Shown: in pieces, positions 2,998-26,727 of the stretch
Position numbering within the stretch: the stretch's first letter is position 1
How the letters are laid out: each line of letters begins with the position of its first letter
NCBI GenBank assembly: GCA_003990745.1
Contig: RBNI01000326.1
Location: 1-33,459, forward strand
Length of the DNA stretch: 33,459 nucleotides
From: Jimgerdemannia flammicorona
Taxonomy: Eukaryota > Mucoromycota > Endogonomycetes > Endogonales > Endogonaceae
Direction: 5' to 3'
Position numbers and translations under genes: made by a program
Notes under the pieces: generated by a model
What the model saw: the letters and a program-made list of their open reading frames with translations, nothing else
Database searches by the model: none
Told to the model about the DNA's origin: nothing

Positions 2998-3380
2998 AGG
3001 GTGTTTTTCTGTTAATATAAAAGCTATTTCTCCTCTATCAGAGAGTGAGAATTCATTGGTTTCTTTAACTTTAAGATCATTTTATATTACCTTGACAATG
3101 GCTTGGGCAATTTATTTTCTATATATGATTTTGACTATCTTCTATCTAGTATTATATAGTAGGACCTTAATTTTACCTCTGAATCCTTAATCTATAACTC
3201 CTCTAGCTATAAGGAGTCTTTCTTCCTTAGCTAGGCTATTTCTTTATATAAGACAGATGTAGGTTAATTTGAGAACTTCCATTCTAAATCTATACTAATG
3301 ATTACTTACTTGTCTGGTTTAATGGTTATTTCTATACTAGAGTAGGGATCATAGCCAGTATTAGCTTTATATACTTTATA
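2998..3380 (-). pseudogene. G1 dUTPase domain (decayed)
   Basis: dUTPases hydrolyse dUTP to dUMP and pyrophosphate and act as trimers. Minus-strand motifs in order: motif I TGYDPYSS at 3,339-3,356, motif II RNSLA preceded by a stop at 3,229-3,246, motif III GVID-stop-GFRG followed by KIKVLLYN at 3,175-3,201, and motif IV IAQAI at 3,097-3,111. A weak candidate for the glycine-rich motif V is RGEIAFILTEKHP at 2,998-3,036. One frameshift lies between motifs I and II. The spacing and order match the single-domain homotrimeric family. It sits between the Gag zinc knuckle and the protease, as in G3 and G4. The motif III Asp survives, but stops in motifs II, III and IV make it a pseudogene. Confidence 0.85.
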
Positions 3381-3507
3381 TGGAATTTTTGCAATAATGT
3401 AGAATCTCTTATATAATCTTGATTTTTTCAGAGATTCCTTTAGAGTTATCTCCTATTATAGTGATAGTATATGAGGAGAATGGGGTTTTTTTTTATGTTG
3501 GTCTTCT

Positions 3508-5150
3508 TATCAGAGTATTTGTAAGATATATATCTTCTCTTTTTATAGTAGAAATATGTTTCTTTCTTTATAAGTTCTTTTAATTCCTTATCAGACAATT
3601 TCTTGAATATTTTTTGTAATTTTAGAGAGTCATTTCAAGGTTCATATTTCTTCTCAATTTGATATCACTTGTCTCTTTTATTGTTATTTCTATTGTCTCT
3701 TAGTTTTTGAGCTACTAAGATAGTATATATTCTGATAATAACTTATCATAAGAACTATTGCTCATGTGGGTAATTATATAGTCATTCTTGCTCTTAGATT
3801 TTTTCTGATAATTATCCAGAAAAAGTATTAAAGATGTATACTACTCTAGTTTCATTTACAGTTTATTCTCATTAGCTATATTCTATTCTTATAATATTTA
3901 GAAGAGTTTTTAATCTTATTACAAATACTTCTAAGTCTTCTTTTTCATCATTATATAATCAGAGGTTCTTGAGCTTAGTTCTGGCTTTAACAATATGGGC
4001 AGAGCTGCAGAACTATTAAATAATCAGCTCTTTTAGACCCATAATAGCTGGGTAGACTTTATGGTTAGGATAATTATCATCTTCTTCACTTGTATCAATT
4101 TTGATAAAGATTTCCCAGATAAGAGAGTATACTAGAAGATTGTATCACTACTAGATAGCTATATCTATAAAATGAGTGATAATGTTTTCTACTTATAAGT
4201 CTGCAGTTATATAGAGATCTTCAATTTCTTAGTATTTATTATTATTGAGAGTACTCTCTGAGTTCTGATTATCATTCCATTTATTAGTATGATAATTAGT
4301 ATCAACTTGTTCAATAAATATTATTACTTAGTCTACTTTATTTTTGAATAGTATAAGTCAAAGGTCTTCTGTAAGTTTGTTTGTTTTGATACTAAGATAG
4401 AGTTATCTACCAATATTATTCTACTATTCTCATCACTTATATAGTAAGATAGTAGTAGTCTTCTTTCAGATACTGTTATCTTAGAGGTAGTATAATGTAT
4501 AGTTATTTCTTCTATAATATTATCAAAGTGGGTGAGCTTGGTGACTAGTCTATAAGCTTATAGTTTTGACAAAGTTATTATTTGGTCTTCTGTAGTGATT
4601 TTTGGTAGACTTGATGTTCTTAGTAGTAGGTCTATAGCAGTACTGAGGTTACTGGTATTGGGTTCAGGTTTTTTTCAACTATTTTTCTAAATCAGAATAA
4701 TATAATAGAGGCTTCACTGAGTCTAGCAGTTTGTAATTCTCACTATTGGATTATCTTTGCTTATATATAGAGGACTCAGTGATAAAGGTGGGATTTCCTT
4801 TAATTAGTATAATATCTCTTATAGTTTAGAAAGATCTTGGCTTTATAGTAATAATTATTAGAGAGAAGATTTAGGAAATATTTACTTATAGCTTCAAAGA
4901 ATTCTCTTATATATTTCTTATAAAAGTGACTACTGATTAATTTTTCAAATTCCTTGAGTGTGGGCAACTTCTTTATTAAGTATGATGAATGTGTTGAATA
5001 CTTTTTAAATGGTTTTATTATTGAGTTTATTAAATTTCTCTTGGCTAGTATAGGTCTTAGTCTATTTAATGATGATTCTATTGACTTCTTTGACTTATCT
5101 AAAGAGTAGTCAGAGTGAAGGTATTCTTTAGCTATCACTAATGATTTTAG
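3508..5150 (-). pseudogene. G1 gag with CCHC zinc knuckle (decayed)
   Basis: Structural Gag of the element. The N-terminal part is a 112-residue lysine-rich open stretch at 4,800-5,138 that I cannot match to a domain. At about 3,880-4,150 the reading KARTKLKNL-stop-LYNDEKEDLEVF resembles the late part of Gypsy Gag (K-L-x-x-L-K-Q, then D/E...F..R/K-L). The zinc knuckle at 3,508-3,583 reads TYFYYKKRRYISYKYSDKK, a CX2CX4HX4C frame in which all three Cys and the His are now Tyr. Those are the products expected from TG-to-TA and CA-to-TA transitions. Several stops interrupt the frame. Confidence 0.7.
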
Positions 5151-5222
5151 TAATATTGACTGAGTTGTCTATATTTGTGGTAGGTTCTTTGAGAGAAGTT
5201 TACTCATAGGTAGAAGTAACTT

Positions 5223-5235
5223 CTACTATTACCAA
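5223..5235 (-). promoter_or_regulatory. G1 primer-binding site
   Basis: The minus strand reads TTGGTAATAGTAG two bases after the LTR end (TTACA). The opening TTGGTA is typical of tRNA-primed Gypsy elements. The same site in G3 reads TTGGTAACAGTAG, differing by one C/T transition. Confidence 0.7.
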
Positions 5236-5534
5236 ATTGTAATAAAACTATATGTTGATAGAATTAATATATTATGAATAATTAAGATAACTATTAGTCC
5301 TAAGTTCTGAGTTCTAGTGAAGAAGTGCTGAGTTCTAATTATCTATTATAGTGGTATAGTCTAAGTATTACTTTTGGATTCTTATACTGATAAAAGTATC
5401 ATTTTTATATCTCAAGTTAATTAGGCTCAGAATTATTAATAAGTCAGATCTGAGAATTCTGTAATAAGAATACTACTTTATTCTTATATTTGAAAAATGT
5501 AGAGCTGAGATTGCAATATACTCTATATAGAGGA

Positions 5535-5542
5535 TATTTATA
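5535..5542 (-). promoter_or_regulatory. TATA box in G1 LTR
   Basis: TATAAATA on the minus strand, in the context TGTATAAATATCC. The identical 13-base context occurs in the G3 LTR at 9,828-9,840, which supports a conserved promoter core. Confidence 0.65.
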
Positions 5543-5562
5543 CAGATTTGAAGCTATGACTA

Positions 5563-5605
5563 AATATAGTATATTGGATATATTTATATATAGTTATACT
5601 ATATT
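5563..5605. repeat. Inverted repeat in G1 U3
   Basis: An 11-base perfect inverted repeat: 5,563-5,573 (AATATAGTATA) pairs with 5,595-5,605 (TATACTATATT), leaving a 21-base AT loop. A second imperfect palindrome (TAGAAATTTCCA against TTGGAATTTCTA) follows at 5,649-5,672. They may be protein-binding sites in U3 or a by-product of low-complexity AT sequence. Confidence 0.6.
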
Positions 5606-6299
5606 CAATATCTATAACTACTAGTTGGAAATTTTATAGAAATTTTGGTAGAAATTTCCATTGGAATTTCTATCAGAAATTCTAGTAATAATTTATTACA
5701 CTATGCTATAAAATGTGATAACAGAATGAGTGACTGAAGAAACTCATAGCTATCAAATTGAAAAAGTGAAACACACTTTGTTGAAGACTTTGAGAAAAGT
5801 AATAGTGAAGATTAGAGTAATCTAGACCTATATCTAACTAAGATTATTTCTAAAAAAAACAGTCTATCTTAAAAAAAAAGAGAAAAAGACCAGTAGGAAG
5901 GCTATTCAGAAGAGTAGGCAGAAGAACTATCTAGAAAGAAGATGAAAAAGAGAAAGAAGAATAGATTGAAATATCTTCCCAGTCTCTCTCACCTTTTGTT
6001 CTAAAACCTATAACTTATAAAAGAAGTCATCTATCTGAAGATAAAGAAATAAAGCTAGAAGAATAAGAGCTCATTACTCTGAAGTCTAAGAAAAGTATAT
6101 CCTAAAGACTATATTCTGAAATATCTATAATAAAGTTTGGTAAAGTTCAAGAAGCTAAGATAGAAGTCTCTCTTCTGTAGTTCTTATAACTGATATCTAC
6201 TGAAGTCTAAAATATATTATTGAGAACCACTAGATCAAGTACTGGCTAAGTCCCAATTCTATAATAAGATCCTATACTAGCTACTAACTAGATAGCTGA

Positions 6300-6800
6300 A
6301 TAATATATCAGTATATACTTGTATAGAGATATTGGAGAACAAAAGGTAAAAATCCTCATTGATATAGGAGTAGCTATCTGTATTATTGCTAAAAGATTCT
6401 TAGACACCCTTTAGTGACCCATTGATAGATCATCCAATCTCAGTATTATAGTAGCAGATAAAGCCTGAATCCAACCTCTTAGAGAAGTATAAAATATCAC
6501 TATTACTCTTAAACACATTCAGTTCTCTATTCTAAAAGCTATTGTTACTAAAGCTATTATCTATAATATAATTTTTAATATTAACTGGATGAAGAAAATG
6601 AATATAGTCATTAACATTAGTCAACAGGTGCTCAAATTCAACTACAGAGAAAAGAAATACCAAATCAAGATGACCAGCTATAAGCAATCCAAGAAGATGA
6701 ATAATATTACTATTCAGAAAGAATATATTAGTAATGAAGAATCTGCTATAGAGAAAGAGAAAGAATCTGAAGATAAAAATGACCCAAGGCTTTATCAATA
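6300..6800 (+). pseudogene. G2 aspartic protease (decayed)
   Basis: The active-site strand reads KVKILIDIGVAICIIAKRF at about 6,343-6,402. The catalytic Asp is present, but the usual D-T/S-G reads DIG, an ACA-to-ATA type change. Further on, at about 6,560-6,690, IIYNIIFNINWMKKMNIVIN fits the G-x-D/N-W-L strand that closes the fold in Gypsy proteases, followed by a lysine-rich open stretch ending at 6,801. Stops at about 6,412-6,415 and in front of the region show that it is not functional. Confidence 0.65.
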
Positions 6801-8050
6801 AATCAATCTAGTAGTTGACAGGCTAGAAGATAATATATTAGCACAAGATACTATTTCTATTTCAATCAGAGCTATCACAGGATAAGCCAAAGGATGTCCT
6901 ACTTGTCTTAAGAGATATAAGTACTCTGAATACTCTTTCAAGATAATTGAAATAAGAAACTCATCTAGTATAGTCTGTCTCAAATGTTAGAGAAGAAAGA
7001 AGAAATATAATTACTCACAGAAGACATCTGATTCTACAACTGAAGCTATAGAAGTATAAGCAATCTAGAGATAAGAAGTAGCTAAGAAAGAGATCTCCAA
7101 ACCAAAAGAACTCTCTGAACTGATCTTCTAAGATAACTCTCACTAGACACTCTAGAAGATAATGATCCTTAGAATACTAAAGAAGAACTAAGTATAGTTA
7201 TCATTATTTCAAGATAAGAAACAAATCAGAAAAGAGCCCTTTTGGTAAGAAGATATTAGCATCAAATGGTCTTTCACTCTCTTCAAGAATACTACTACAT
7301 ATCAGTATTATATATTGGATTAGTAAGAAAGACAGAGATACTCTGAACCAATATCTCTCATCTAAAGAAACATACATTCAACTGACTTCAAGATCTGAAC
7401 TTACAAAACAAGAAATCACTACAGAAGAAGAAATAATAGACCCTGGATATATAGACAAATTTCTGAAAAATAGCTTTAAATAGATTTAATTCTATAGATG
7501 AGAGAAAATTTCCCAAGCAGTCTTTATAAAGATCAAGACACCCCAACTTTAGAAAGTTTTTGAACTAACTCAAGGTATAAGACAGATCAAAGAATTTAGA
7601 ACTCAGACAAAAAGAAGGTACATTCCCTTTAAGTCAATTACTTTAAGAAGAATATACTCTATTACTAACTAGTCAAACTTCAAAAATCTCATCCTACAAT
7701 CTAGAGAGCAGACTATCTTTGAAATATTTCATCACTAGACTTCAGAAATCTCTTCTTCAAATCAAATAAAGATCTCAGAAATCTTAATAGAGAAGGATAT
7801 ATATTTCCAGATAAGATGAACTCTGTAAATTTCTGAGCAATCAACCAAAGCTGGGACAGTCTTATTCTGTTAAAAGGAGTTATTATAGGCTATCTGATAC
7901 TATATTTCAACCAGATATATAGAGAAATCTATGAACTGAACCTATTAGTAAATGGCAAAAGATCTCAAAAGAAAGGAAAGACCTCTCTACAATATAGGAG
8001 AAAGTAAAGTCTTCTACCAATATTAGAGAAGAACTAATATCTCAGCAATA
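6800..8050 (+). other. G2 protease-RT spacer, unassigned
   Basis: About 1.25 kb of plus-strand text with recurrent coherent stretches and many stops. It holds CPTCLK and CLKC pairs at about 6,896 and 6,980, but no pattern I can name. It shows no dUTPase, chromodomain or integrase motif. It is longer than the usual distance between protease and reverse transcriptase, so it may hold an extra domain or an old insertion. Confidence 0.4.
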
Positions 8051-8059
8051 GTAGCAACT

Positions 8060-8760
8060 AGTAGAACTCTTTATAAATATCAAGATATCTTTACTACAGA
8101 TTATAATAACCTGTTATACAACTCATCATATCACTATAGTATAAATATAGAAAATACAACACCCACCCAATAGAAGCCTTATAGAATACCCTACTATCTA
8201 AAGATATTTGAGAAAGAATATATTTAGGAACTCTTAGACAATAGAGTCATCTGATTCTCTATTAGTCTCTGGGTCAGCCCTATACTTATTATACTAAAGA
8301 AAGGAGATAGAGACTTTATATATATTATAGAAAACTCAACTCAGTAATAGAAAAAGATACTTATCTCTAGCTCTAAATTGATGATCTCTTAGACTAACTA
8401 TAGAATATCAGAACTTCAGCAGTATGAATCTTTTTGCAGAATTCTATAAGATCTCAAGGATATTTAAAAGACAGTCTTATCTTAGAAAAATGGTTTGAAT
8501 ATCTCTAAATATCCTTTAGACTCTATAATATACCCCCAACCTTCTAGAGAATGATAAATACAGTCTATACCCCTCTGAGCCATTACTGTCTATTTGTCTA
8601 TATAGATGACTTCAATATTTATTCAACAAAATTCAAAAAACATTTACCTATAGAAATTCTTTCAGCTTACCTTAAAGAACTATCTGAGGCTTAATATTCA
8701 AAAGTACTACTTTTGAAAATAGAAACTTAAATTTCTTAAATTTATAGTCTTTAAGGAAGT
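8060..8760 (+). pseudogene. G2 reverse transcriptase (decayed)
   Basis: The plus strand gives the Gypsy RT motifs in order: FEKEYI at about 8,206, then VI-stop-FSISLWVSPILIILKK at about 8,246-8,305 (normally R-P-S-x-S-P-x-A-S-P), GDRDF, a degenerate I-D-Y-R position, and IDDLLD at about 8,378 between two stops at Gln positions. FRLYNIPPTF follows at about 8,518-8,547, and the catalytic box FVYIDDFNIYS at 8,593-8,625. The YIDD box (8,599-8,610) is intact. CAA-to-TAA, CCN-to-CTN and CGA-to-TGA changes are all visible within 150 bases, which makes this a good place to measure the mutation spectrum. Confidence 0.85.
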
Positions 8761-9029
8761 TATTCATATAGATCTAAAGAAAACTGAGAAGATTAATAAA
8801 TAGTCAATACTCAAGAGTCTGAAAGAAATACTATTATTCTTGATACTAGTATCTTATTACAAAAGATTTATTAAAAATTTTATTTAAATTACTATATCAA
8901 TTCAAACTCTTCTCAAGAAAGAAATACCATATAAATAGAAGAAACCATAAGAATTAAGCTTCAAAGAACTCAAGCACTATATAACTATAGTACTAGTCCT
9001 TATATGATCCAATCTATAGAAGTAATTTA

Positions 9030-9410
9030 TCTTATATATATATAGATACTTCTTAAGATAGCCTCAGAGCAGTCTTAGCCCAAGAGAGACCTGATCAGTA
9101 GCACTATATAATAGCTTATACTAGCTGAGCTATTAGTAAGCAACAAGTCAACTATAGTGGCTCCAAACTGGAATACCTTATAGTTATATAGACAATCACT
9201 CTGTTCAAGCACTACTTTATTTAAAAAAGAATTACTCTAATAACTAACTATACTGCTCTCAAATGACTATTCAACTATAAAAAACCTATTAGAATTCTTG
9301 CCCACTAGATTCTGATTCAAGAGAATAACAAAATTACTATCATCTTTAAGATAGAAAAGGTCTATAATAATGTTGATATGTTTTCTCACTAATCTCAATA
9401 AACCTGAAGA
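9030..9410 (+). pseudogene. G2 RNase H domain (decayed)
   Basis: Reads IDTS-stop-DSLRAVLAQERPDQ from about 9,041, then HYIIAYTS and ISKQQVNYSGSKLEYLIVI, then the L-T-N-Y-T-A-L-K strand (9,238-9,262) and VYNNVDMFS at about 9,361. This is the ordered set of RNase H-like motifs seen after Gypsy RT, ending in the N-x-A-D-x-L/F-S exit. Integrase should follow but the sequence changes to LTR-like text by about 9,541, so G2 is truncated here. Confidence 0.8.
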
Positions 9411-9540
9411 AGAATATACTCAGAAATATATTCTAAAGAAAGTTTTTATAACTACCACAAAAAAACCTTATCTGATAAGAACACCAGAAAGACTATCAAG
9501 AATAGATAAATATAGAAGAGAAATTATAACAATATTATAG

Positions 9541-9982: not shown

Positions 9983-9995
9983 TGGTAACAGTAGT
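9983..9995 (+). promoter_or_regulatory. G3 primer-binding site
   Basis: TTGGTAACAGTAG starts directly after the LTR. It differs from the G1 site at one C/T position. The TTGGTA start suggests a tRNA 3'-end primer. I do not assign the tRNA. Confidence 0.6.
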
Positions 9996-10049
9996 ATAAT
10001 TATATAAGAAACCTTACATGAATTCAGAAACCAGTTTCGACTAGTTACA

Positions 10050-10970
10050 TAAGTCTAAAATGAATTACAAAGAACCAGCTTATCATCCAGACTTCTTTAT
10101 TATAAAAGAAGTAGATAACACAGAACTACAAGTCAACCTAGAGAAAATGATTATCTCTATGGATTATCAGATTTAACTACTTTAAGTATAAGTAGAGTAC
10201 TAGAAAACAAGAACTACAGCTACATCACAACCTGCTGCTACACTAGTTAGCTTCAAGTTACTTAAGCCAGATATCTTTGATGGTCACTAAGGAGAACTAA
10301 CCACAAATGTATAGACCTTTCAGTTAGATCAATACTTTGAACTTACAAGAATGAAAAAAGATATATAAGTCCAATTTGCTACTATACTTCTCTAAGAAAA
10401 TACAGCCATTTGATGGTACAATTATATCATAACTATTACTATCTACTTGAATACAAGAATTCAAGATTGGAAATCCTTAAGGAGGGCCTTCACTAGCAGT
10501 TTAAGTCTGCTAATACTACTAAGCTAGTCAGAGATAAGCTAGCAAACATCAAGCAACTTAAGTCTGTACAAAGTTATAATGAATAATTTCTGTTAATTCT
10601 ACTTAAACTATTAGTGATATCTGAAGATGAAAAGATAGACTGCTATATCTGAGGCCTAAAAGAAAGAAAATACATAAGTCAAGATTAAGCTAGAAGAGTT
10701 ACAGACTCTCAATAAAGCTATGAGAATTGCTGAGAGGTTTGATATTATTACCTTTAGCAATTACTTTGAGCCAGAATACTATAAGAAGAACTATTTTAAG
10801 AACTATTATAAGAATTAATCCAAAGCAGTTGGCCTAGTACCAATGAATCTGGATATTATAAATAAGAAAAATACCAAGCTTATCCTAGAAGAAAAAGACT
10901 GCCTGAAGAAAGCTGGAGCTTGTTTCTTCTATTACCAAATAGGATACATTGTAACCAAATATCCTAAGAA
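10050..10970 (+). pseudogene. G3 gag with CCHC zinc knuckle (decayed)
   Basis: Capsid and nucleocapsid protein. From 10,261 the frame reads LKPDIFDGH-stop-GELTTN, then LDQYFELTRMKKDI, then TAI-stop-WYN, which is the retrotransposon Gag core (P-x-x-F-D-G ... W-x ... A-x-x-W). It continues KLVRDKLANIKQLKSVQSYNE after a frame change near 10,500 and returns to the first frame by 10,720 with MRIAERFD. The zinc knuckle at 10,921-10,962 reads CFFYYQIGYIVTKY, a CX2CX4HX4C frame in which only the first Cys survives and the other three ligands are Tyr. The open stretch 10,843-11,160 carries the knuckle straight into the dUTPase. Confidence 0.8.
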
Positions 10971-11079
10971 GATCAGCAAATCCTCAAGATCAGTCACTGT
11001 ATTGTCCAAAGACATACCTATCAATTTCACTATTAGTCAATCTAAACTCAAGATTAAGAAGTTTCATCTGAAGACCCAG

Positions 11080-11460
11080 ATCTCTCAATATCAATCAGAA
11101 GAAGTCATTGGTCTTGACCTATACTCTATCAAGCAAGTCACCATTCTAGCTAAAGGCTAAACTCTGATATCTACTGAAATTGCAGTCCAATGTCCTGAAG
11201 GATATTATACCAGAATTATACTACAGTCAGGACTCAGTATCAAATATTATTTAGATATTAGTACTGATGTTATTGATCCAGACTATAGAGGACAAGTTCA
11301 AGTCTTACTTGTCAACCAGAAGGATCAAGACTACACAGTTAAGAAAGGAGACCAAGTCATGCAAATAATTCTAGAAAAAGCCAGTTAACTCAAGATTACA
11401 GAAGTCTAAGAACTATCTGAAACTAAGTAAGACCAGAAAGATTTTGATGGTACTGATCAA
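11080..11460 (+). pseudogene. G3 dUTPase domain (decayed, in frame with gag)
   Basis: All five dUTPase motif positions can be followed in one frame: motif I GLDLYS (11,110-11,127), motif II as YYTRIILQSGLS (11,203-11,238; the family has R-S-G/S-L-A), motif III DVIDPDYRGQVQVLL (11,266-11,310), motif IV KKGDQVMQIIL (11,341-11,373), and a degraded glycine-rich motif V, DFDGT (11,440-11,454). The motif III Asp and Tyr and the DYRG turn are intact. Motif II has lost its Arg (CAG, Gln). Four TAA stops interrupt the domain. In the family this enzyme keeps dUTP low and supplies dUMP. Here it would travel with Gag and so could protect element cDNA from uracil (inference). Confidence 0.92.
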
Positions 11461-11760
11461 GCAGTAAGTTTTACTAAAAATCAAATATAAGCTATACTCA
11501 TTTTTAAAGATCTAGTCAAAGGAAAAGAAGTTCAAGTACTCATAGATAGTAGAGCTACAGAAAACTTCATCAACCAGAATTTTATTAAAAATCTCAAGAT
11601 TCTCACCAAGTCTATAAGAAAGTACTTTGTTAAAATACTATTACATAGTTCTGAAAGGGGTTTCAGAAAGTTCTGGATATTCTGAAAGACCATTTTCTTA
11701 AAGTCAAGATCAATTTTGTATAGAGTATGTTCTCTATACTTATTGATTTCAAGATTAGGT
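11461..11760 (+). pseudogene. G3 aspartic protease (decayed)
   Basis: Same frame as the dUTPase. The active-site strand reads GKEVQVLIDSRATENFINQN (11,521-11,580), the Gypsy D-S-G-A-T-x-x-F-I pattern with the catalytic Asp kept and Gly changed to Arg (GGA to AGA). One stop (11,488-11,490) separates it from motif V of the dUTPase. The frame becomes unreadable after about 11,640, and the second half of the domain is not clear. Confidence 0.8.
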
Positions 11761-13900: not shown

Positions 13901-14057
13901 AGAATGAGATACAGGCTAACATAGGCCCTGCTGTGCCTGATATAGTCAAGCTGCTAGACAATAGTTAGCCTAGATTAATAGGGGGGCAGTGCTTGATGGG
14001 TGGTGGGGGAGGGTTTTGGCCTATATAGTCTAGGTTCTTTTCTAATAAAAATCTGCA

Positions 14058-15030: not shown

Positions 15031-15039
15031 TCTGATAGT

Positions 15040-16150
15040 ACCAATTTGTAGAATATTAGAGAAACTTGTGTAATAACTTCAAATGGTCCAATGAACTTAC
15101 TCTTCAGCTTTGTAGAGAGTTTATGTTTAAGATTATTAACTTAGTAACCTTGGATATCTAGTAGAATCTTTTTACTGATATCAAAAGTTCTTCTCAGTAG
15201 TGCTAGTTGATATACTATGATTATTGCTTTTGAGCTTGAGATAAATTCTCAATTGTAATCTAGCTTAAGTTGTATATTTAGAGTAGGAATTCTTCAATAG
15301 CTTTAACAGTAGAGAGTTCATTAGTAGTTCTGATAAGGATCAGGAGAGTGTTTGGATTTCATCCTATATTGATAAAGAACAGAGTCATTCTAAGAGAAGC
15401 TTGTTTGCTATTATTGTAAATAAGCTCAACTATAGTAAGATATTTATACCAATCATCTTATCTATAGAAAACATAGTTCCTTAGCATTTGCTCAAGAGTT
15501 TGATTCATTCATTCAGTTTGTCTATTAGTTTTTGGGTGAAAAACTGTAGATAGTACTAGTTTTGTTCTAAGGTATAAGTGTAGAGCTTTCCAAAAATAGC
15601 TGGTGAATTTCAGATCTCAATTACTAATAATGAACTTAGAAAGACCATGATAGTAGAAGATATTATCAAATTAGAGTATAGCAATTTCAGATACTATTGT
15701 AGTTATAGTAGTAAGAACAAAGTGGGCTTATTTACTAAGATAGTCTATAAAGACAATAATTGTATCTTTTCCATTCTTGGTTCAGAGTAGTTGTATAATG
15801 AAGTCTATAGAGGTTTGTTTTCAATTAGCAGATAGTATTAGAATAGGGTAGAGTAGTCTCAGTTTTGCTAGAGTTAAGAACTTATTGTATTAAAAGACAT
15901 TACAAAAAGTAATATAGATCTTTAACTAGTCTATTATATGGGGCCAATAGAAGTTTTAGAAAATAACTTTATAGTATTTATCAAATCTTAAATATCTGAC
16001 TGTAGAGGCATTATGATATTCAAACAGAATAGTTATTTAGAGGTCTTAATTATTAGGAATATATAATCTATTCTAAAAATAGATAGCATTTTCCTTCAAT
16101 TAGTATTGATGATACTGAGAGTACTTATCAATATCATTACTGCTCAGGAT
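15040..16150 (-). pseudogene. G4 integrase (decayed)
   Basis: The enzyme that inserts element cDNA. On the minus strand the core reads VDFIIQLL at about 15,800, then TKNGKDTIIVFIDYLSK and AHFVLTT, then FDNIFYYHGLSKFIISN with the usual S-D-R-D now SN-stop-D (second catalytic Asp to Asn). FHPKTNRQTE follows at about 15,508-15,540 and keeps the catalytic Glu. The C-terminal GPF/Y module reads KFIGPFEVITQVSLIFYKL at about 15,040-15,100. The N-terminal zinc finger should lie at about 15,860-16,100 but is too eroded to read. Several stops are present, so the enzyme is dead. Confidence 0.85.
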
Positions 16151-16209
16151 TTCTCAGAGCACTTGAGCTTCTTTATCATTGACATATGCTGCAATAATTT
16201 GTTCTATAA

Positions 16210-16588
16210 TAGAGTTGGTAACTAAGGTAATAGTTTATATAACTTCTTTAATTAGTAGTCTAGAGATTGCATCAGTGATAATATTTTTCTTACCAGGGTG
16301 GTATTGGATTTTATAGTTGAAATTGATGAGAACTTTCATCCATCTGACTTGCTTTCTAGAAAGAGTAGTCTGGGTCTTGATATTGATTAATACTTTATAG
16401 TCTATCAATATAGTAAAGTATACTCCTTTAAGATATAAGTACTATTTGATCAGGATGTTCACAATAGCTAATATTTCCTTCTTATAGATAATATAGTTAA
16501 TTTTGGTATCATTAAACTTATGAGAATGATAGACTATAGAATATCCTTCTTACATAAGTATTGCTTGAAGGACTAGATTAGAGACATT
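16210..16588 (-). pseudogene. G4 RNase H, 3' part (interrupted by L1)
   Basis: From the L1 junction the minus strand reads NVSNLVLQAILM-stop-EGYSIVYHS, HKFNDTKINYIIYKKEILAI and further strands, the Gypsy RNase H pattern (D-A-S-x-x-A-x-G-A-V-L-x-Q, then N-Y-x-x-x-D/E-K-E-L-L-A-I). The 5' piece of the same domain lies beyond L1 at 22,371-22,500. Confidence 0.85.
16573..16588. repeat. L1 target-site duplication, left copy
   Basis: CTAGATTAGAGACATT. It matches 22,371-22,386 (CTAGGTCAGAGACATT) at 14 of 16 positions, and both differences are transitions (A/G, T/C). Confidence 0.88.
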
Positions 16589-16940
16589 TTTTTTTTTTTT
16601 ATAGTCACTTGGACACCTTTATTTCAAAACCAGTTTAAACAATTTACAAGTTCTATTAACCACTCACAACTACACCCAAAGAGGCCCACCAAACTCTATA
16701 GGATCTATTAACTCACCCCAATTTTTCACTACACCCCACCCTCACCCAGTACTAAATGACTCCAACTCTTGAAGACAATATCTTGCACCTTCTTCACAGT
16801 CCCCAACTTCTGCCACCTCTTCTAGTACTATCACCTCTATACTATCTCTCTTATAAGTCAATACTAATACTCCACCAAGTCCCCAACTCTCATCTAGCAT
16901 TTACCTTCAAAGACCCATTGCTAGTCTGATACCATTAAGA
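16589..16940 (-). other. L1 3' untranslated region
   Basis: About 350 bases between the end of readable ORF2 and the poly-A. It contains AATAAAGGTG about 20 bases before the tail on the minus strand, a plausible polyadenylation signal. No repeat or domain was seen in it. Confidence 0.55.
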
Positions 16941-19900
16941 CCTATACTCCTAAGATCTGTCCAACATCACTCCAAATATCACCAATATCAGTCTCCTCTG
17001 GGTGACTATACTGACAGAGGTCCCTGGCCACCCTTGCTCAGAACTCTAATATTCCTCCAAGGTCTGCCAATAATCTTTCACCCCAGGACAGGCCACCAAG
17101 ATATGCTCTGAAGTCTGAACTACCTCTCTAGAGATTTCAGCATACTATTCACAATCTTGGTACCCATTGACTATCATTCAGTCTGTTTAGTAATTCAATA
17201 TCACATTCTTTCTCAAGAACCACCACTATACTAACCAATACCTAGGGGATACTACCTTATTCAATATAGCTACCTAACTCCAAACTCAACTTCATTCTCA
17301 AACCTCCCCAATTCCAGCTATCTGCCATCCAACTGACCATCTCCCAAATGGACCTGTCCTAGCCCATTCTATAGCCTCTACTAGAGAATAGTCCTTCAAC
17401 ACCCTACCCTCTACTCTGGACAACTCTAGTCACTAACATTATTGCTTCAGGTCAACATCCTCCTCTACTATCTCCATCTCAGGCCCTATTAGTCTCATAG
17501 CTAGTTAGGCCTCTACAATACTCTACCAGAACCCTTTATACTATATTCTGCCAACTTTTCCAATCTGAAGTAACTCTTTTATATTCTTCTACTCTTCATC
17601 TCAAGGGCAGAACCTGACCTCCCAATTGTCTATCACCAGTCTGCTCCAACTTCCTTCTCTTAGCTCTATAAGGCAGCAACTCCACCAGTCCTTAAGAGCC
17701 TTTAGCCACTATCAGAAATCCACCAGCCCCAGACTCTCATCAGCAATCAGTAGCACCAATGTCTCCTATCTAATCTGCAGCTACCTTCTCTTCCAGAGCT
17801 ACCCTTCAATAGCCTTCTTTAGCTACTGCACCACTCACCCTGGGAAGTCCAAGTAGTAACCCAAGTACCACAACTTCATCAACTAGTATATATTTAAAAC
17901 CACTACTCTTCCCATCAGGGAGAAGTTAAAACCAGCCCAACCCATCAGTATACCTTCTCATTTCTGCACCATTGCACTCCACCACTCTTGACAAAACTGT
18001 TCTGAAAATCAAAAACCAAATGTCCAAATACTGAACAACCTCTCTATTAGGTACAACTTATCCAAACCCTCCCTTAGCCCCCATATATATACTAAGCTCC
18101 AAAGTCTCACATTTCTTCCAATTCAACTTTATATCTACTAATCTCTCATATTATTCAATTCTCTCTCATAAAGTATCCACATCTGCTGTACTACTTAGCC
18201 CAACTACTATATTATCTGCAAAAGCCCCAAGCTTCCAGACTATCTCTTCCATCCTCAGTCTAGTCAGCCATCTCTTCAGCTAGGCCAATACTGGCTCCAA
18301 TGAGAGAATATAAAGGAAGAGTGAGAGGGGGTCTCTCTGTGGAACTCCCCTATTCAAAGCAAACTCTAGACTATACCAACCATTCATCAGAACTGCCCCT
18401 CTATAGTCACACACTAGTCTTATCAGCCTTCCAACCTCTTCTTCTCCAAATCCAACTTTTTGTAACACAGCCTCCATATAGCACTACTGCACCCTATCAT
18501 ATGTCTTCTTCTGATTCAAGAAGACCATCTTCTCATTGACCTAATGGCTCCTATAGCCCTCCAAGACATTTTACACCCAAGCAGTACTATCTCTGATCTG
18601 CCATCTCTTCACAAAACCCCTCTGCTTCTTCTCTACCAGTCTACTAATCCACTACTACAATCTCTCTACCAAGACCTTCAAAACCAACTTCCTATCTACA
18701 TTTAATAACATTATTGACCTCCAGTTACACCATACCCTCCTGTCATCTTTCTCTTTGTACAATAGAGAGACCAACCCTAAGTTACTATTACTAATCCACC
18801 AACCCTCTTCTAATACATAGTTAACTATCTCTATAAGCCAAGCCCCAAACTCAGCCTGGAACTTCTTCCAAAATTCCCAAGAGAGCCTATTCTTATCAGG
18901 TGATGAGCCACCAGACATCTTCTGCAGAACCCCCAATACCTCTTCCAAAGATACTCTGCCTATTACAGAAGCCCCCATCTCTGGCAGTAGTACTATTGGC
19001 CAGTTTCACACTAATGGCACATCTATAATATCTAGTATACCATCTCTCCCTCCCCTACCCTCATCACTCCAGAGGGCCTGCTATTGCCCAGAGACCTCCT
19101 TTAGTATATCTACCATACTAGAGACTTCAAACTTTATCCTTTTATAATACTGAAGCCCAGCTGTACTATACCTTTCTAGCTTTTAAGACACCAGATAGAT
19201 ATTTTGTTAGTTACTCACCCTCTTCTAGTTGCCAAGCCCTCAGGTATATCAGAAGACTATCTATCACTCTATTTTCAGCCTATCTCATATCTGACTACAG
19301 ATCTATCACCTCTCTAGTCAGTCAGTACTGCTCTTCTCCCTACCAGCATCCTGTCTTCCAATAACTTCAGTCACTACCTCAAACCCCTCTCAACTCTCCT
19401 TTCCTTGTCCTTCTGCTCCTTTCCAGCTACCTCTCTAATGTCCTGCCAATATGTATCTGCTAAGTATTTAAATCTGCCCCACCATTCAGCAATAGACAAA
19501 CTACTATTCACCCACCTCTCCACTTCCTGTCTGGCTAAGAAAATAAATTGCTTCCTTTCCACCAGTTACCAGAGCAAGACCATATTAAGATATCAATGCC
19601 CTTCTCTACCACTAACTGCCTGAAACCTTCCACATACTTCAACTCTCCAATGGTCAGACCATAGGCACCACTGTACTTCTACAATATCCAACACATTACC
19701 TCAATGTTCTGCTACCAGCATCCAATCAATCTATATTCCCACTATTCTATTACTCACCAGATGCTATCTAGTAAAGGGCCCTGACTTATCACCAGTCCTC
19801 AGCCACATACTATCTACTAGTCTCATTCCTTTTTCTACCTAAAGCCACTGAGACAGTTCCTGAGAGATGGCTACACCAGCCCCACTATCAGATTAATCCA

Positions 19901-20330
19901 GTACATGATCCCATACCATATTGAAGTCTCCCCCCAGAATGTTCAATCCCAGGGCTACTCAATCCTCCCAAGCCAACCACTCCTCCACCCATTGCTTTCA
20001 CTCTCTACCAACTACTGGCAGATATACAGAGCCCATCAAAGTTCATCTCCAGTACCTCCCTTCAGCCTTCTCCACACCAGATGACTACCAAAACATCAAC
20101 TAGCTTGCTCTTTCTTATATCAACTAGAATACCAACTTACCTATTTCAACCAATACCTCTAAACTATTCCTTACTCCACAACTCATAGTCCTATACATCA
20201 TAAGTCCAAACATCCTGAAGAAATACTACATCATACCTCTGGACCTTTAGCTATTGAAAAAGATACCACTGCTTAACTCCATTACATAGACCATTGATAT
20301 TGATTAATAAAATTTATAGATTATTCTTCA
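16940..20330 (-). pseudogene. L1 ORF2: endonuclease-reverse transcriptase (decayed)
   Basis: The minus strand starts near 20,330 with ININGL. AP-endonuclease motifs follow: VVFLQDVW (20,212-20,220 for LQD; the family norm is LQE), GGDFNMVW (GDFN at 19,920-19,931), IDWMLVAEH and WSDHWRV (about 19,640-19,661). The RT follows: a domain-0 open stretch at 18,655-18,978 with SGGSSPDKNRLSWEFWKKF and RSIMLLNVDRKLVLKVLVER, motif A FLNQKKTYDRVQ (Asp to Asn), motif B RGVPQRDPLSLFLY (about 18,330-18,360) and motif C FADN (18,211-18,222). A C-terminal finger at about 17,060-17,160 reads DCE-stop-YAEI...QTSEHILVACPGV. Many TAG/TAA/TGA stops. Confidence 0.9.
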
Positions 20331-20339
20331 TCATGAATA

Positions 20340-22190
20340 GCAAGTTTAGATATCAGCTACTACTGCCACCACCTTCTCAGCCCTATTCTTGATGATGTCC
20401 TGATACTTCTCATAGACTGCCCTCCAAATTGACTCTCTATTGATACTGCCACAGAAGAAGTTCACTTATTCTGATACCACCTTTCTGATATCTGCCATCC
20501 AGGCTTCATCTACCTCATACCCTTTATCCTCTAGGAGGGCTGCTACCATGGCAGTCACTAACTTCAGTCCTTGCAATGCCATATTAAGAAATCCTTCCCA
20601 TATCTCTAGAGAACTCTGAAATACATCTACTTTCTTAATGTCTTCCTCTGCAAGCTCCTCAAGGACAGCCTAGAACCAACTATCTATCACTATCACCAGT
20701 GGCCCCAGAGTAGCAGGCCTAGAGATTCTGCATAACTTCTAAAGTAATTCTCTATCTGTAGATACATCAGAAGCAATCTCTACCAGATCATCCTTCTCCA
20801 AGACTTTGTTCAGCCACACTACCTCTCTAGCCTCAGGACATTTTCAGTGTACATTCACAGATCTGGCCATTGTTATGTCCTCTATCTGAGTCTCTGGGAC
20901 CACCTCAACATCCTTCTTAAAACCTGCTCTCCTCTCTTCCTCACCATCAGCCCACTTCTCCTTCACAGATACATACACCAAGTCTCTCACTCTCTCTAGC
21001 TGCAAGAAGGATACTTCAGCTACCTTTACCCCTTCTATTTAATTCCTGTCAGTCATGGCCCTCTCAGCCTCCTCCTCAGCAGACCCTTGCAATACTACCT
21101 GCAACTGCTCCCAATTCTTCTTATACTATTACCTCCTCTTCCCATCTGCCTCAATCCAGATTCAATCCTTGGCAAACTCCTCCCACTTTCTCTTTCATAG
21201 AGCCTTTGCTTCATTGCATTCCTTTAGTGCAATCAGCAACTCTTTCTCTTCCTGCTCAGAGCCTTTCCTCCTCCAAACCTAATACTTCTGTCCCCCAACA
21301 TAAATGATCTCAGGCCAGTTCTGCCCCAACCCAGTTGCTGCCTTCTCTTCCAACTATACCATTGCCTCATAATTACTATTCCTCAACTTTGTATCCTCTC
21401 AAAACATAAACCTGAAATCTACTATCTCATCAAAACCTTCCAGAGCTTTGGCTATCACCATCTTAGTCTCCTGTCTGCTCAGTATTGGCAATCTTTCAAC
21501 CACCAGCTATATTGCATGTGGGTCCCACCTTAGATACCTTGCCATCTCCACCTTGATGTTCTTGACCATCAGTCTCTTCTCCAGGCCTTCACTATGGCTT
21601 TCTCCTCAATAAAGCCAATCTCCACTACCTCTATCAAAGGAATAAATCTCAGTAGCTCTATCTCTATAACCTCCTTATCCACCAATCACAGAACCTTCTT
21701 GACAGATAGACCAAGACCCAAGAAGTTGGTAAAGACTATCTATGTCAACACTAACTTGTAAAAGAATAGACACACTACTAGCTCACCAGTCTTCACAGCT
21801 AGGGTTGTCTTACTCTAGCTCCTAAAAATAACAGCCACTATCTCTTCAAGAGTTATTGTGCCACTAGCAGTCACACCCCCAGCCACCATTCCAGCCCCAG
21901 GAAAGTCAGTCCCAGCAGTACCCCAGACCCTTACTAGGCACCTGACCAGTTAGCTGACTGGTCACCTAACTCCCACTCCTATCAACACTACATCTCTCCT
22001 ACCCTTCTACTGTAGGCCTAGAGGTAGCCCTCTTACTCTCTACCACTATATACCAACTGTCTACTCCAGTCATCTGCTCCTGACCACTAGTCTGCCTCCC
22101 TACTCTACTAGCCCCAGCAGCTACTGCAAAACTCTTAAGAAGATCCAGGCCAGGCCTCCTCTTCTCCAAGTGCTCAGAGCTTGATAAATC
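20340..22190 (-). pseudogene. L1 ORF1: RRM-like nucleic-acid-binding protein (decayed)
   Basis: ORF1 proteins of LINEs bind the element RNA. The minus strand gives RWDPHAIQLVVERLPIL then ETKMVIAKALEGFDEIVDFR at about 21,450-21,530, a strand-helix-strand unit like an RRM. The same unit is clear in L2 ORF1. Later parts also align with L2: RKGSEQEEKELLIALKEC at about 21,210-21,290 and MVAALLEDKGYEVDEAW at about 20,500-20,560. The N-terminal end lies in the open stretch 21,999-22,319. Stops and frame changes make it a pseudogene. Confidence 0.8.
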
Positions 22191-22370
22191 TTGATTTATT
22201 ATTATATGAAAATTTGACAGATTTTGATAAAACTTATTGAGTATTATTGCCAGACTCCTGCACCAGTATAGGTAAAGTAAAAACTTAAAAATAAATGGCT
22301 TTTTGCAAAAGATATCCATGTGACTTAGCTTGCTCTGAGTGGTTTGAATAAAAGAAGTCCTTGTATATAG
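22191..22370 (-). other. L1 5' leader
   Basis: AT-rich sequence between the ORF1 start and the duplicated target site. Its base composition differs from the G-rich sense strand of ORF1, so it could also include a small older insertion. No motif recognised. Confidence 0.4.
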
Positions 22371-22386
22371 CTAGGTCAGAGACATT
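22371..22386. repeat. L1 target-site duplication, right copy
   Basis: CTAGGTCAGAGACATT, the 5'-side copy of the L1 target. On the minus strand both copies encode N-V-S-D/N-L of the G4 RNase H, so the duplication is confirmed by reading-frame continuity. Confidence 0.88.
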
Positions 22387-22500
22387 AGTAGTAACTTTAT
22401 ATAGTAGGGCAGTTTGTTACTAGAAATACTGAAGTGGTTATTAGGGTATTTTTCAAGACTTTGAAGGCTATATCATATTCCAATCTCTATTTAACAAGAT
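22371..22500 (-). pseudogene. G4 RNase H, 5' part
   Basis: The minus strand reads LYKVTTNVSDL up to the L1 junction. This is the first strand of the RNase H domain (normally F-x-V-x-T-D-A-S-D). The catalytic Asp has become Asn in both copies of the duplicated segment. The domain resumes at 16,588. Confidence 0.75.
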
Positions 22501-22599
22501 TGTTGAAGTCTTTTTCTTACTTTGTGATCCAGAGTTATCCTTTCTTTTTACCATACTTGATCAGTTGGGTAAGAGTGGTTACAATTTTGGTAAAGTTTG

Positions 22600-23300
22600 T
22601 AATAAATTACCTATAATAGTTTACTAATCCTAGGAATAACTAAAGGTCTTTCAGCTTCTTGGATCTGGACCATTTCTTGATTGTAGAGATTTTGCTAGAG
22701 TTTACTTTAATTTCTTAGGAGTAACAATATGTCCAAGGAATTGAATTTCCTTCAGAAAAAATTTATATTTACTAAGTTTTACAAAGAGTTGGTTTTCTCA
22801 GAGCTTCAGTAGTACTAGTTCAAGATGTTCAAGATGTTTCTCCAGAGTTTTACTAAAGACCAGAATGTTATTAATATAGATAATAACAAACTTATCTAGG
22901 TATAGGTATAGGATAGTATTCATCAAAGTCTGGAAGGTAGTAGAAGTATTAGTTAGACCAAAGGACATAACTGAGAACTCAAAATATCCATAGTAAGTTC
23001 AGAAAACAGTTTTGTAGATATCTTCTTCTTTCATAGCAATTTGCCAGTAGCTATTCTGTAGATTAAAGAGCTTATGAACTATGGATTGGTAAGCCTATCA
23101 AAGATCTCATCAATTTGGAGTAGTGGGCAATAGTTCTTAATGGTCTATTTATTGAGGTCTCAGTAATCAATATATATTTAAAGATCTTCTCCTTTCTTGA
23201 TGACAAAAAGAACTAGTATACTATATAGTAATATACTAGATCTAATGAATCCTTATTCTAAGCAATCATTAATCCTCATCTTGAGTGTATCAATTTCTCT
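22600..23300 (-). pseudogene. G4 reverse transcriptase (decayed)
   Basis: The minus strand reads FVIKKGEDL-stop-IYID, CPLLQIDEIFDRL, FSVMSFGLTNTSTTFQTLMN and the catalytic loop IIYINNILVFSKTL. The Y-x-D-D box at 22,868-22,879 now reads YINN, with both catalytic Asp changed to Asn by G-to-A transitions. F-G-L-T-N is intact. Stops lie in the N-terminal half. The family is clearly Gypsy RT; the copy is catalytically dead. Confidence 0.88.
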
Positions 23301-23850
23301 AAGAGTTATGTAATAGATTGACTTGAAGGCTGGCTTAGCATCTAATATAGTTTTAATTACATAGTCAACTACTCATTTAAGTGATAGACCTTTTGGAAGT
23401 TTCTTTAGAAATATATCTTAAAATTTCTAGAGTAATGGTCTGACATAACTGTCAACTTTGAAAAAGTCTTCTTCAAGGTTCTCTGGTTCTTCTTTTAATG
23501 GACATATAGAGATAGCAAAGAGAGGGCACTTCTTCACTAATTTCTTAAGTTGTAATTTATTAATGTGAGTGATCTTTGGACCAGAGTTACTAGTATTGAG
23601 TGAGTCTCTTTTACCTTACAGTTTGAAGTTATGGCATCTTTTCTTAATAATCAGAGAATAGTTCACCCAATCTATCATGAGGTTCTCTTGTTTAACCATA
23701 GTGCTAAGGATGATCTCATTGTCAGGAAGTGGTATAATTTGCAAAGTAATATGTACTCAGTAGTCACTAATTCTGAAGGATAGGTTGTGAACTTTCTTAC
23801 TAATGATATATGAGATTCCATCAACTATAGCAACTACTTGGGGTTGTTAT
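23300..23850 (-). other. G4 protease-RT linker
   Basis: Minus-strand text of the Pol linker between protease and RT, with stops and short coherent stretches. No extra domain recognised. Confidence 0.4.
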
Positions 23851-23940
23851 ACTTGAGAGGTCAGAACTTTAAGTCTGTTGGCTATTTTCTTATTGATTAA
23901 ATTGCCTGAGGTACCACTATCTATCATAATCTTAATAGGT
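23850..23940 (-). pseudogene. G4 aspartic protease active-site region (decayed)
   Basis: The minus strand reads IKIMIDSGTSGNLINKKIAN at about 23,880-23,935, followed by RLKVLTSQV. The D-S-G triad (23,913-23,921) is intact and the pattern D-S-G-x-S-x-N-x-I is that of Gypsy retropepsins. It lies about 250 bases downstream of motif V of the dUTPase. The second half of the protease continues into the linker and is not well readable. Confidence 0.8.
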
Positions 23941-24185
23941 GATTAATTAAAAAAAACTTATAGGATAAGCAGTTTGTCTAATTTAATAGTGGTAATTTTA
24001 GTTATAGAGAGCTTTCTTCTGTTAGCTCTTCATTAGGCTAACTCATTGATATATGAGAAGCAATTATCAATTATTCAGAATAAGTATATTCCAATACCAT
24101 AAGAGCATTGACCACTCAGTACAAATCTATCTTCAATTTTTCTATAGAATTGTTTCTCCTTATTCACTATAGGTTAAGCTGGAGT

Positions 24186-24545
24186 CTTATTTGATGAGCC
24201 AAATCCCTTGGATCCTCAGATGGTTAGTAGTAGTTCAGAAACTTTCTTAACTATCAGAATTGATTCAATTTTCTTAAATAGGATCTGGGCAATACAAAAT
24301 CTGCTAGAGATCTTAAATAGTATTCAACTATGGTTTCAGATAAGGATAATGATTTCTTCTATATAATCTTCATCAATAACTCCTTCTACTGAGAGTCCTT
24401 TTAATGCTAGGCTGCTGTAATAACATATTCTTCCAATATATCCTTCAGGAATTTGAATACTGATTTCTGTATAGATCTGCTTAACTTCTCAGTTGGAAAT
24501 AATAGCTTCTTCAGCTATATATAGGTTATATCTAGCTGCTTTTTG
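24186..24545 (-). pseudogene. G4 dUTPase domain (decayed)
   Basis: All five motif positions can be read on the minus strand: motif I AARYNLYIAEEAII (24,519-24,539 for the core; Gly to Arg), motif II GYIGRICYYSSLALKG (24,396-24,443), motif III GVIDEDYIEEI (24,354-24,383), motif IV FCIAQILFKKI at about 24,280-24,310, and motif V SKGFGSSN (24,186-24,215), which is very well kept. Motifs II to V lie in one frame with three TGA stops; a further stop lies between I and II. The motif III Asp is present. It follows the Gag zinc knuckle by about 130 bases and precedes the protease, the same order as in G1 and G3. Residues between motifs differ strongly from the other two copies. Confidence 0.92.
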
Positions 24546-26724: not shown

Positions 26725-26727
26725 AAA

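What the first reader, a model, noticed from the sequence alone, without database searches (positions are those of the whole stretch)
2998..24545. Three distinct Gypsy elements carry a dUTPase between Gag zinc knuckle and protease
G1 (2,998-3,380, minus), G3 (11,080-11,460, plus) and G4 (24,186-24,545, minus) each show ordered dUTPase motifs directly after a CX2CX4HX4C knuckle and before the retropepsin. The residues between motifs differ strongly, so these are separate families that share an architecture. Betaretroviruses have the same order, nucleocapsid-dUTPase-protease; lentiviral dUTPases sit elsewhere in Pol. Either a fungal Gypsy lineage acquired dUTPase on its own at the same place or the arrangement is old. 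A dUTPase packaged with Gag could protect cDNA from uracil in dormant hyphae (inference).
Basis: partly seen in the sequence, partly recalled or inferred. Interest (0 to 1): 0.9.

Follow-up and report, generated by a model that had tools for sequence, protein, structure and literature searches.

The report
Fungal Gypsy retrotransposons carrying dUTPase
Decayed Gypsy retrotransposons in a fungal genome carry a built-in dUTPase, an enzyme that keeps uracil out of DNA, placed between the RNA-binding end of Gag and the protease; dUTPase in fungal Gypsy elements has been in print since 2008, and the part worth following is that families in this one genome carry it on opposite sides of the protease.

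Summary
The three dUTPases are real. Pfam PF00692 matches at 1.1e-8 (G1), 1.3e-24 (G3) and 3e-22 (G4). G1 is frameshifted and its protease is barely recognisable; none of the three zinc knuckles is intact. Better-preserved relatives in the same genome confirm the order knuckle, dUTPase, protease (families A=G3, B=G4, D=G1). Of elements sampled by their protease, 20 of 20 have it. A fourth element, G2, not in the finding, keeps a faint dUTPase at 7,382-7,633 between protease and RT, as in an open family C. In the copies seen, B, C and D share a small Cys/His-rich module lying between dUTPase and protease: dUTPase-module-protease in B and D, protease-module-dUTPase in C. Protease-sampled copies show fewer amino-acid changes than a context-matched null. 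dUTPase in fungal Gypsy elements, also at the N-terminus of Pol, is already published (PMC2864245). Trees favour at least two dUTPase lineages here, but a single origin within this genome is not rejected (p 0.12, 0.14); one origin for all DUT-PR elements tested is rejected (p 0.0018). Verdict: new member of a known kind.

The parts
3455..4378 (-). G1 Gag remnant
   Evidence: tblastn of family B Gag, 27%, E 2e-27
3511..3566 (-). G1 zinc-knuckle remnant, broken frame, no intact ligand set
   Evidence: position located; identified by eye against relative L028
3019..3410 (-). G1 dUTPase remnant (motif 1 at 3336-3410 in a different frame from motifs 2-5)
   Evidence: Pfam PF00692 1.1e-8 over 3028-3261; motifs located; 40 of 183 candidate DNA copies scored, 79-100% identity, the window itself included
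2827..2922 (-). G1 Cys/His module remnant between dUTPase and protease
   Evidence: alignment to the B, C and D modules, 0 of 2000 shuffles as good
2350..2650 (-). G1 protease candidate (DSG-like motif at 2609-2629); bounds approximate, weak
   Evidence: read by eye; Pfam 0.14, below cut-off; no tblastn match to A, B, D proteases
936..2138 (-). G1 reverse transcriptase/RNase H
   Evidence: tblastn of P0028, E 2e-57
6355..6684 (+). G2 protease, C type
   Evidence: tblastn of family C, 30%, E 5e-14
7382..7633 (+). G2 dUTPase remnant between protease and RT (not in the finding)
   Evidence: tblastn of family C, E 1.7e-4, colinear; Pfam 0.049, below cut-off
8063..9263 (+). G2 reverse transcriptase/RNase H
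   Evidence: tblastn
10240..10800 (+). G3 Gag
   Evidence: tblastn of family A Gag, 47-64% in pieces
10921..10962 (+). G3 zinc-knuckle remnant, 1 of 4 ligands left
11047..11460 (+). G3 dUTPase, motifs 1-5 in one frame with stops
   Evidence: Pfam 1.3e-24 over 11077-11445; motifs located; 53% to family A
11473..11622 (+). G3 protease start; homology ends here
   Evidence: tblastn of family A protease, 58%, E 8e-13
24678..24719 (-). G4 zinc knuckle, 3 of 4 ligands
   Evidence: Pfam zf-CCHC 0.076, below cut-off
24192..24563 (-). G4 dUTPase, motifs 1-5
   Evidence: Pfam 3e-22; 75% to family B
24039..24152 (-). G4 Cys/His module between dUTPase and protease
23667..23996 (-). G4 protease
   Evidence: tblastn of family B protease, 67%, E 1e-43
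22336..23840 (-). G4 reverse transcriptase, overlapping the protease C-terminus
   Evidence: tblastn of family B, mostly 59-71%
24896..26508 (-). G4 Gag
   Evidence: tblastn of family B Gag, 62-64%
15188..16603 (-). G4 RNase H and integrase, cut off from RT by an inserted stretch
   Evidence: tblastn of family B, 63-64%

Best explanation
G1, G3 and G4 are decayed copies of three Ty3/Gypsy families (chromodomain shown in relatives of G3 and G4) whose single Gag-Pol frame encodes a trimer-type dUTPase between the nucleocapsid knuckle and the protease. Shown: domain identity, order in relatives, single frame, constancy across sampled copies, retained motifs in open copies, and fewer amino-acid changes than a context-matched null. 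Inferred: after particle assembly the protease frees a nucleocapsid-dUTPase or dUTPase product that hydrolyses dUTP inside or near the particle, so that reverse transcription makes cDNA low in uracil when the host's own dUTPase is scarce. Also inferred: dUTPase and protease behave as movable modules, since in family C, and in the remnant G2, they are in the opposite order.
For: Pfam matches against a shuffle control. Open frames: A dUTPase 135-261, protease 269-386, RT 521-681; D knuckle 202-218, dUTPase 255-383, protease 496-586; B knuckle 600-616 (19.8 bits, just under cut-off 20.8), dUTPase 650-776, protease and RT further on in the same frame (protease names precomputed for the near-identical P0001); C protease 187-291 before dUTPase 430-558; chromodomain in A and B. 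Same frame from Gag to RT apart from 1 to 9 stops per stretch. 20 of 20 protease-sampled copies with knuckle then dUTPase. N/(N+S) observed against null: A 0.47 vs 0.61 (p 0.026), B 0.42 vs 0.61 (p 0.0005), D 0.50 vs 0.68 (0 of 2000). A database relative, P0028, has the same order in one 1,111-residue protein. Model of relative P0029: the 50 Foldseek rows listed are all dUTPases, best E 1.1e-11.
Against: The window copies are dead (stops, frameshifts, lost ligands) and G1's protease is hardly recognisable. Knuckles of B and D score under Pfam's cut-off. The P0029 model is weak overall (mean pLDDT 53; dUTPase part mostly 60-90). No enzyme, particle or processing data. Family B lacks the usual GDR of motif 4 (recalled). 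The selection test uses few copies (A 4, B 7, D 5 usable, one of them as reference), changes are not polarised, and stop-making changes are not rarer than the null in A and B (4 vs 4.5, 4 vs 4.8; D 3 vs 5.6), which fits neutral decay of the copies themselves. The link to host dUTPase supply is borrowed from retroviruses.
Confidence: 0.85

Rival explanations
1. One old acquisition: an ancestral fungal Gypsy element took up dUTPase once between Gag and protease, and A, B and D inherited it, with C moving it later.
For: AU tests do not reject A+B+D (p 0.124; 0.139) or A+B+C+D (p 0.134; 0.0746); for RT, A+B+D+P0028 as one clade is not rejected either (p 0.0696). B and D share Gag (39%, E 4e-89) and the module.
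Against: Starred branches split A with P0028 and P0037 from B, C and D. A's Gag matches D only around the knuckle (E 0.007) and no module was found in A copies by a pattern scan. The free RT tree does not group A, B and D.
Confidence: 0.35
2. Two or more independent captures or swaps: A's dUTPase and that of B, C and D come from different sources, and the site between Gag and protease is a repeatedly used landing site.
For: dUTPase trees; one origin of all DUT-PR elements tested, with database proteins P0044, P0047, P0085 and P0091 included, is rejected (p 0.00177); many positions in database proteins.
Against: Within this genome alone the test is not significant; A with those four database proteins alone is not rejected (p 0.285); short domain, long branches; RT tree weak.
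Confidence: 0.6
3. The dUTPase-like domain is no longer an enzyme but a structural or dUTP-sensing part of the polyprotein.
For: Motif 4 is altered in family B and motif 3 in family D (sequences).
Against: Residues that I recall as catalytic in motifs 1-3 and 5, and the motif 4 Gln, are kept in the open copies of all four families listed.
Confidence: 0.12
4. Chance or nested gene: the segment is not part of the elements.
For: None found.
Against: E-values, shuffle control, one frame with Gag and RT in relatives, 20 of 20 sampled copies.
Confidence: 0.01

Closest known systems
dUTPase-containing fungal Ty3/Gypsy chromoviruses (Phanerochaete elements, Tuber Tmt1, Postia PosPlaTy3-3/-4/-5)
   Same: Fungal Gypsy elements with dUTPase in Pol; PosPlaTy3-3 has it at the N-terminus of Pol, which fits the A, B and D position; PosPlaTy3-5 has it between PR and RT, which fits C (PMC2864245, passages read; the 2008 papers are known only through that text).
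   Different: Four families and two positions in one genome, a shared Cys/His module between dUTPase and protease, unnamed host. Sequences of the named elements could not be compared here.
Betaretroviruses (MMTV, MPMV), nucleocapsid-dUTPase fusion
   Same: Order nucleocapsid, dUTPase, protease.
   Different: There the dUTPase is a trans-frame Gag/Pro product (PMC4531489, passages); here one frame. No betaretroviral sequence was in my trees.
Bdelloid rotifer Juno, Vesta and TelKA elements
   Same: LTR retrotransposons with dUTPase.
   Different: dUTPase between PR and RT, like family C (PMC5408684, passages).
Database protein P0028 (source code 'src'; origin not named by the tool)
   Same: Gag, knuckle, dUTPase, PR, RT, RH in the same order; 43% over 97% of the 301-residue family A query region.
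   Different: Its RT is closer to family D (66%) than to A (54%), while Gag, dUTPase and PR are closer to A.

Membership tests
Trimer-type dUTPase (PF00692) | HMM match above curated cut-off | tested here: met
   G1 35.3, G3 86.9, G4 79.2 bits against cut-off 22. G2 not met: 13.9 bits.
Trimer-type dUTPase (PF00692) | Five ordered motifs | tested here: met
   G3 and G4 by position; open copies of A-D; G1 only across two frames. Motif names are recalled.
Trimer-type dUTPase (PF00692) | dUTPase fold | tested here: inconclusive
   Relative P0029 only: mean pLDDT 53, Foldseek to dUTPases, best E 1.1e-11.
Trimer-type dUTPase (PF00692) | dUTP hydrolysis | not testable with these tools
   Needs an assay.
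dUTPase-containing fungal Gypsy chromoviruses | Gypsy-type RT, RNase H, integrase, chromodomain | tested here: met
   Family B by Pfam; family A RT and chromodomain by Pfam, integrase by tblastn of P0028. Chromodomain of C and D not tested; no G1 or G3 integrase was matched in the window.
dUTPase-containing fungal Gypsy chromoviruses | dUTPase at N-terminus of Pol | tested here: met
   A, B and D; C differs (PR before dUTPase).
dUTPase-containing fungal Gypsy chromoviruses | Sequence kinship to the named Phanerochaete, Tuber or Postia elements | not tested
   I had no sequences of them.
Betaretroviral NC-dUTPase | dUTPase between NC and PR | tested here: met
   G1's protease weak
Betaretroviral NC-dUTPase | dUTPase is a trans-frame Gag/Pro product | tested here: not met
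   Gag to RT in one frame in relatives; P0028 is one 1,111-residue protein.
Betaretroviral NC-dUTPase | Common dUTPase ancestry | not tested
   No betaretroviral row in the trees.

The most novel reading that the evidence does not exclude
dUTPase and protease have traded sides around a conserved Cys/His module (C-P-H-x5-C-x6-C-x2-C in C and D): dUTPase-module-protease in families B and D (and G4, G1), protease-module-dUTPase in family C. With dUTPases that fall on the same side of the tree but very different RTs, this would mean that a dUTPase-module cassette moved between Gypsy lineages living in one genome and was re-seated on the other side of the protease, so polyprotein domain order in Gypsy elements is reshuffled by recombination. 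The module had no Pfam match in the C and D frames scanned and could be a processing or RNA-binding element.
Probability: 0.4. Interest if true: 0.55.

Novelty: new member of a known kind. Interest (0 to 1): 0.36.

Why it matters
dUTPase has been gained several times by retroviruses and retrotransposons. One fungal genome with four dUTPase families in two positions gives a natural comparison of where the enzyme can sit and whether it must be tied to Gag. It also bears on how often retroelement polyproteins are rebuilt by domain exchange. The basic fact, dUTPase in fungal Gypsy elements, is not new.

Tried and rejected
Host's own dUTPase: searches with yeast Dut1 and its 64-residue core listed no better match than 46% and 56% identity, at the level of element copies. 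Each call scored 150 of 4,952 and 4,381 candidates and a gene split by introns would be missed, so absence from the host is not claimed.

Host: EF-1 alpha exon, best named record Racocetra fulgida 92% (only proteins of 0.55-1.75 times the query length were candidates, 120 of 7,851 listed); an EF-1 alpha tree of 19 rows groups it weakly with Racocetra and three unnamed rows of source jgi (82/86). A fungus, perhaps near Glomeromycotina; not settled. SSU search gave no answer.

Mosaic origin of P0028 (dUTPase with A, RT with D): suggestive, but the AU test against A+P0028 in RT is p 0.063. dN/dS from all fetched copies (0.13-0.24) set aside: most copies were picked by dUTPase similarity and changes are mainly transitions; replaced by the context null. 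In one search the family C result (0.41 vs 0.60) is not used, since those 20 copies were picked by dUTPase similarity; only gap-free full-length copies entered (A 4 of 7, B 7 of 7, D 5 of 6; all 5 D copies, the reference too, hold a stop). One search left out six rows: both window copies, two G1 relatives, P0007 and P0124. Structure prediction of the module was not tried. In my tree labels 'soil' for P0028 and P0037, 'algal' for P0009 and P0020 and 'Copia' for P0002 are guesses, not from a call.
Full report
What was checked. The window lies in a 134.8 Mb, 7,754-contig assembly (G000:C326). Pfam PF00692 matches the three intervals with stops read as X: G1 1.1e-8, G3 1.3e-24, G4 3e-22. tblastn with dUTPases of the four families found in this genome gives up to 60.5, 129 and 144 bits for G1, G3 and G4; the best of 100 dinucleotide-shuffled windows gives 26.6. 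The calls are therefore not chance. Protease after the dUTPase: G4 142 bits, G3 55.5 bits (first part only), best of 100 shuffles 23.9; for G1 only a retropepsin-like reading by eye, Pfam 0.14 and below cut-off. The window copies are dead: many stops, G1 frameshifted between motif 1 and motif 2, and none of the three knuckles intact. G4's RT and RNase H are parted by an inserted stretch, and G3 loses homology just after the start of its protease.

Relatives. The genome search with PF00692 had 5,391 first-look candidates; 150 of 150 scored are above the cut-off. Open or nearly open copies that I looked at fall into four families; there may be more. A (like G3): dUTPase 135-261, protease 269-386, RT 521-681 in one 693-residue frame. 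B (like G4): knuckle 600-616 and dUTPase 650-776 in an 803-residue frame, with protease, RT and RNase H further on in the same frame after two stops. D (like G1): knuckle 202-218, dUTPase 255-383, protease 496-586. C: protease 187-291, then dUTPase 430-558, then RT. A and B have chromodomains. Between Gag and RT the frame is the same, apart from 1 to 9 stops in the five stretches checked.

Is the domain constant? To avoid picking copies by their dUTPase, I took roughly every 20th of the 150 best protease hits in each of families A, B and D (ranks counted by hand; one B rank was shifted by one because its upstream side was cut by the contig end) and fetched the DNA upstream. 20 of 20 (7 A, 7 B, 6 D) have the knuckle region and then the dUTPase. 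In one the dUTPase match covers 105 of 132 residues, in one the knuckle match is cut by the contig end, and in several a few end residues are missing. These are among the better-preserved copies, so the result says nothing about the most decayed ones. Family C was not sampled this way.

Selection. In those protease-sampled copies, changes against one reference copy are less often amino-acid changing than when each change is moved to a random site with the same trinucleotide: A 0.47 vs 0.61 (p 0.026), B 0.42 vs 0.61 (p 0.0005), D 0.50 vs 0.68 (0 of 2000), odds ratios 0.57, 0.47 and 0.47. Copies usable: 4, 7 and 5. Stop-making changes are about as common as the null in A and B (4 vs 4.5, 4 vs 4.8) and somewhat fewer in D (3 vs 5.6). 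This fits a domain kept by selection in the source elements and decay after insertion.

A fourth element. G2, plus strand, not listed in the finding, aligns colinearly with family C: protease 6,355-6,684, dUTPase 7,382-7,633, RT 8,063-8,305 (E 5e-14, 1.7e-4, 6e-5). The dUTPase piece alone is 28.9 bits against 26.6 for the best shuffle and 13.9 bits in Pfam, below cut-off; I accept it mainly because of its place. If so, all four Gypsy elements that I recognised in the window had dUTPase, in two positions.

The module. Between dUTPase and protease, B, C and D have a related 40-45 residue stretch with C-P-H, further Cys and a final C-x2-C; 18 to 27 identical positions in pairs of B, C and D, 0 of 2000 shuffles as good (the typed B, C and D stretches may blend copies). 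It is present in G4 (24,039-24,152) and, decayed, in G1 (2,827-2,922): G1 against B, C and D 0 of 2000 shuffles, against G4 11 of 2000. No Pfam family at E 0.01 covers it in the C and D frames scanned (the B frames scanned break off in it). A pattern scan found it in 52 sources, the window among them, in none of the loci that hold only family A, and in 1 of 247 database proteins, P0001, a near-identical B protein; the pattern also misses some B, C and G1-type copies. The order is dUTPase-module-protease in B and D but protease-module-dUTPase in C.

Trees. dUTPase tree, 48 rows: A groups with database proteins P0028 and P0037 (98/96 starred) and is separated from B, C and D by starred branches; the same without decayed rows, 42 rows. 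AU tests, with P0028 and P0037 counted in A: A+B+D as one clade p 0.124 and 0.139; A+B+C+D p 0.134 and 0.0746; B+D p 0.287 and 0.587; B+C+D p 0.258; A+B p 0.114; A plus the database DUT-PR set p 0.285; all DUT-PR elements together, with the database set P0044, P0047, P0085, P0091, p 0.00177. RT tree, 34 rows, is weak: C stands far from A, B and D; A+P0028 p 0.063, D+P0028 p 0.376, A+B+D+P0028 p 0.070, the last two groups and the first not rejected at 0.05. So the position was probably reached more than once among all elements, and two lineages within this genome are likely but not proven. No betaretroviral row was included, so the link to betaretroviruses is untested.

Database proteins. Of 127 proteins (7; 120 listed of 182), my domain scan finds 3 with knuckle-dUTPase-protease (P0028, P0029, P0034), 10 with dUTPase before protease and no knuckle in the piece (P0001 is family B itself), 59 with protease before dUTPase, 5 with dUTPase beside RNase H and/or integrase and 1 in a Copia-type protein. 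The other 49: 12 dUTPase alone, 21 dUTPase repeats, 12 dUTPase with RT and no protease in the piece, 3 knuckle and dUTPase without a detected protease, and P0036 with no dUTPase. P0028 is 43% identical over 97% of the family A query region.

Mechanism. The order and retained motifs suggest that the protease releases a nucleocapsid-dUTPase or free dUTPase, which lowers dUTP during reverse transcription. In non-primate lentiviruses dUTPase is reported to matter mostly in non-dividing cells (PMC4531489, passages; the same idea is cited for fungal elements in PMC2864245, passages). For these elements this is inference.

What is known. PMC2864245 (passages) reports dUTPase in Gypsy elements of Postia placenta at the N-terminus of Pol, between PR and RT, or at the C-terminus, and cites earlier finds in Phanerochaete chrysosporium and Tuber melanosporum, with independent gains suspected. 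PMC2774666 (passages) likens betaretroviral dUTPase to that of fungal chromoviruses. PMC5408684 (passages) describes PR-dUTPase-RT in bdelloid elements. PMC11105155 (passage) reports a dUTPase Pfam excess in Entomophthora muscae. PMC1224870 (passages) counts three gains in retroviruses. In the passages and listings that I saw, no paper showed the module or the mirrored order; searches: an open-licence library only, none of them aimed at the module itself.

Verdict. The kind of thing is known; the mirrored arrangement around a shared module is the part worth following.

Noticed in passing
7382-7633 (+), element 5.9-9.5 kb: Fourth Gypsy element (G2) with a remnant dUTPase between protease and RT, like family C.
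   Followed up: yes
about 16612-22300: A stretch inserted into G4 between RT and RNase H, GC about 42%; 71-72% inverted similarity in three pieces to the RT-bearing stretch at 30-32 kb, so probably a LINE, minus strand; Pfam on one frame of it found nothing.
   Followed up: partly
26686-33459: A Copia-type Gag (Retrotran_gag_2, 4e-7 and 3e-7) followed by a GC-rich (about 53%) stretch with RVT_1 (2e-16), LINE-like by eye; far less decayed than the Gypsy copies.
   Followed up: partly
1-16500 and 22500-26600: AT-rich (27-37% GC) Gypsy copies with TpA/ApT ratio about 1.0-1.3 and, by eye, Gln codons turned into stops, as after repeat-directed C-to-T change; loci L001-L008 of better-preserved copies are 42-46% GC.
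   Followed up: partly
G000: No host dUTPase exon surfaced above element copies; searches capped at 150 scored candidates, so undecided.
   Followed up: partly
P0040, P0093, P0066, P0080, P0098: Gypsy-like proteins with dUTPase next to RNase H and/or integrase, an order like that of non-primate lentiviruses (recalled).
   Followed up: no
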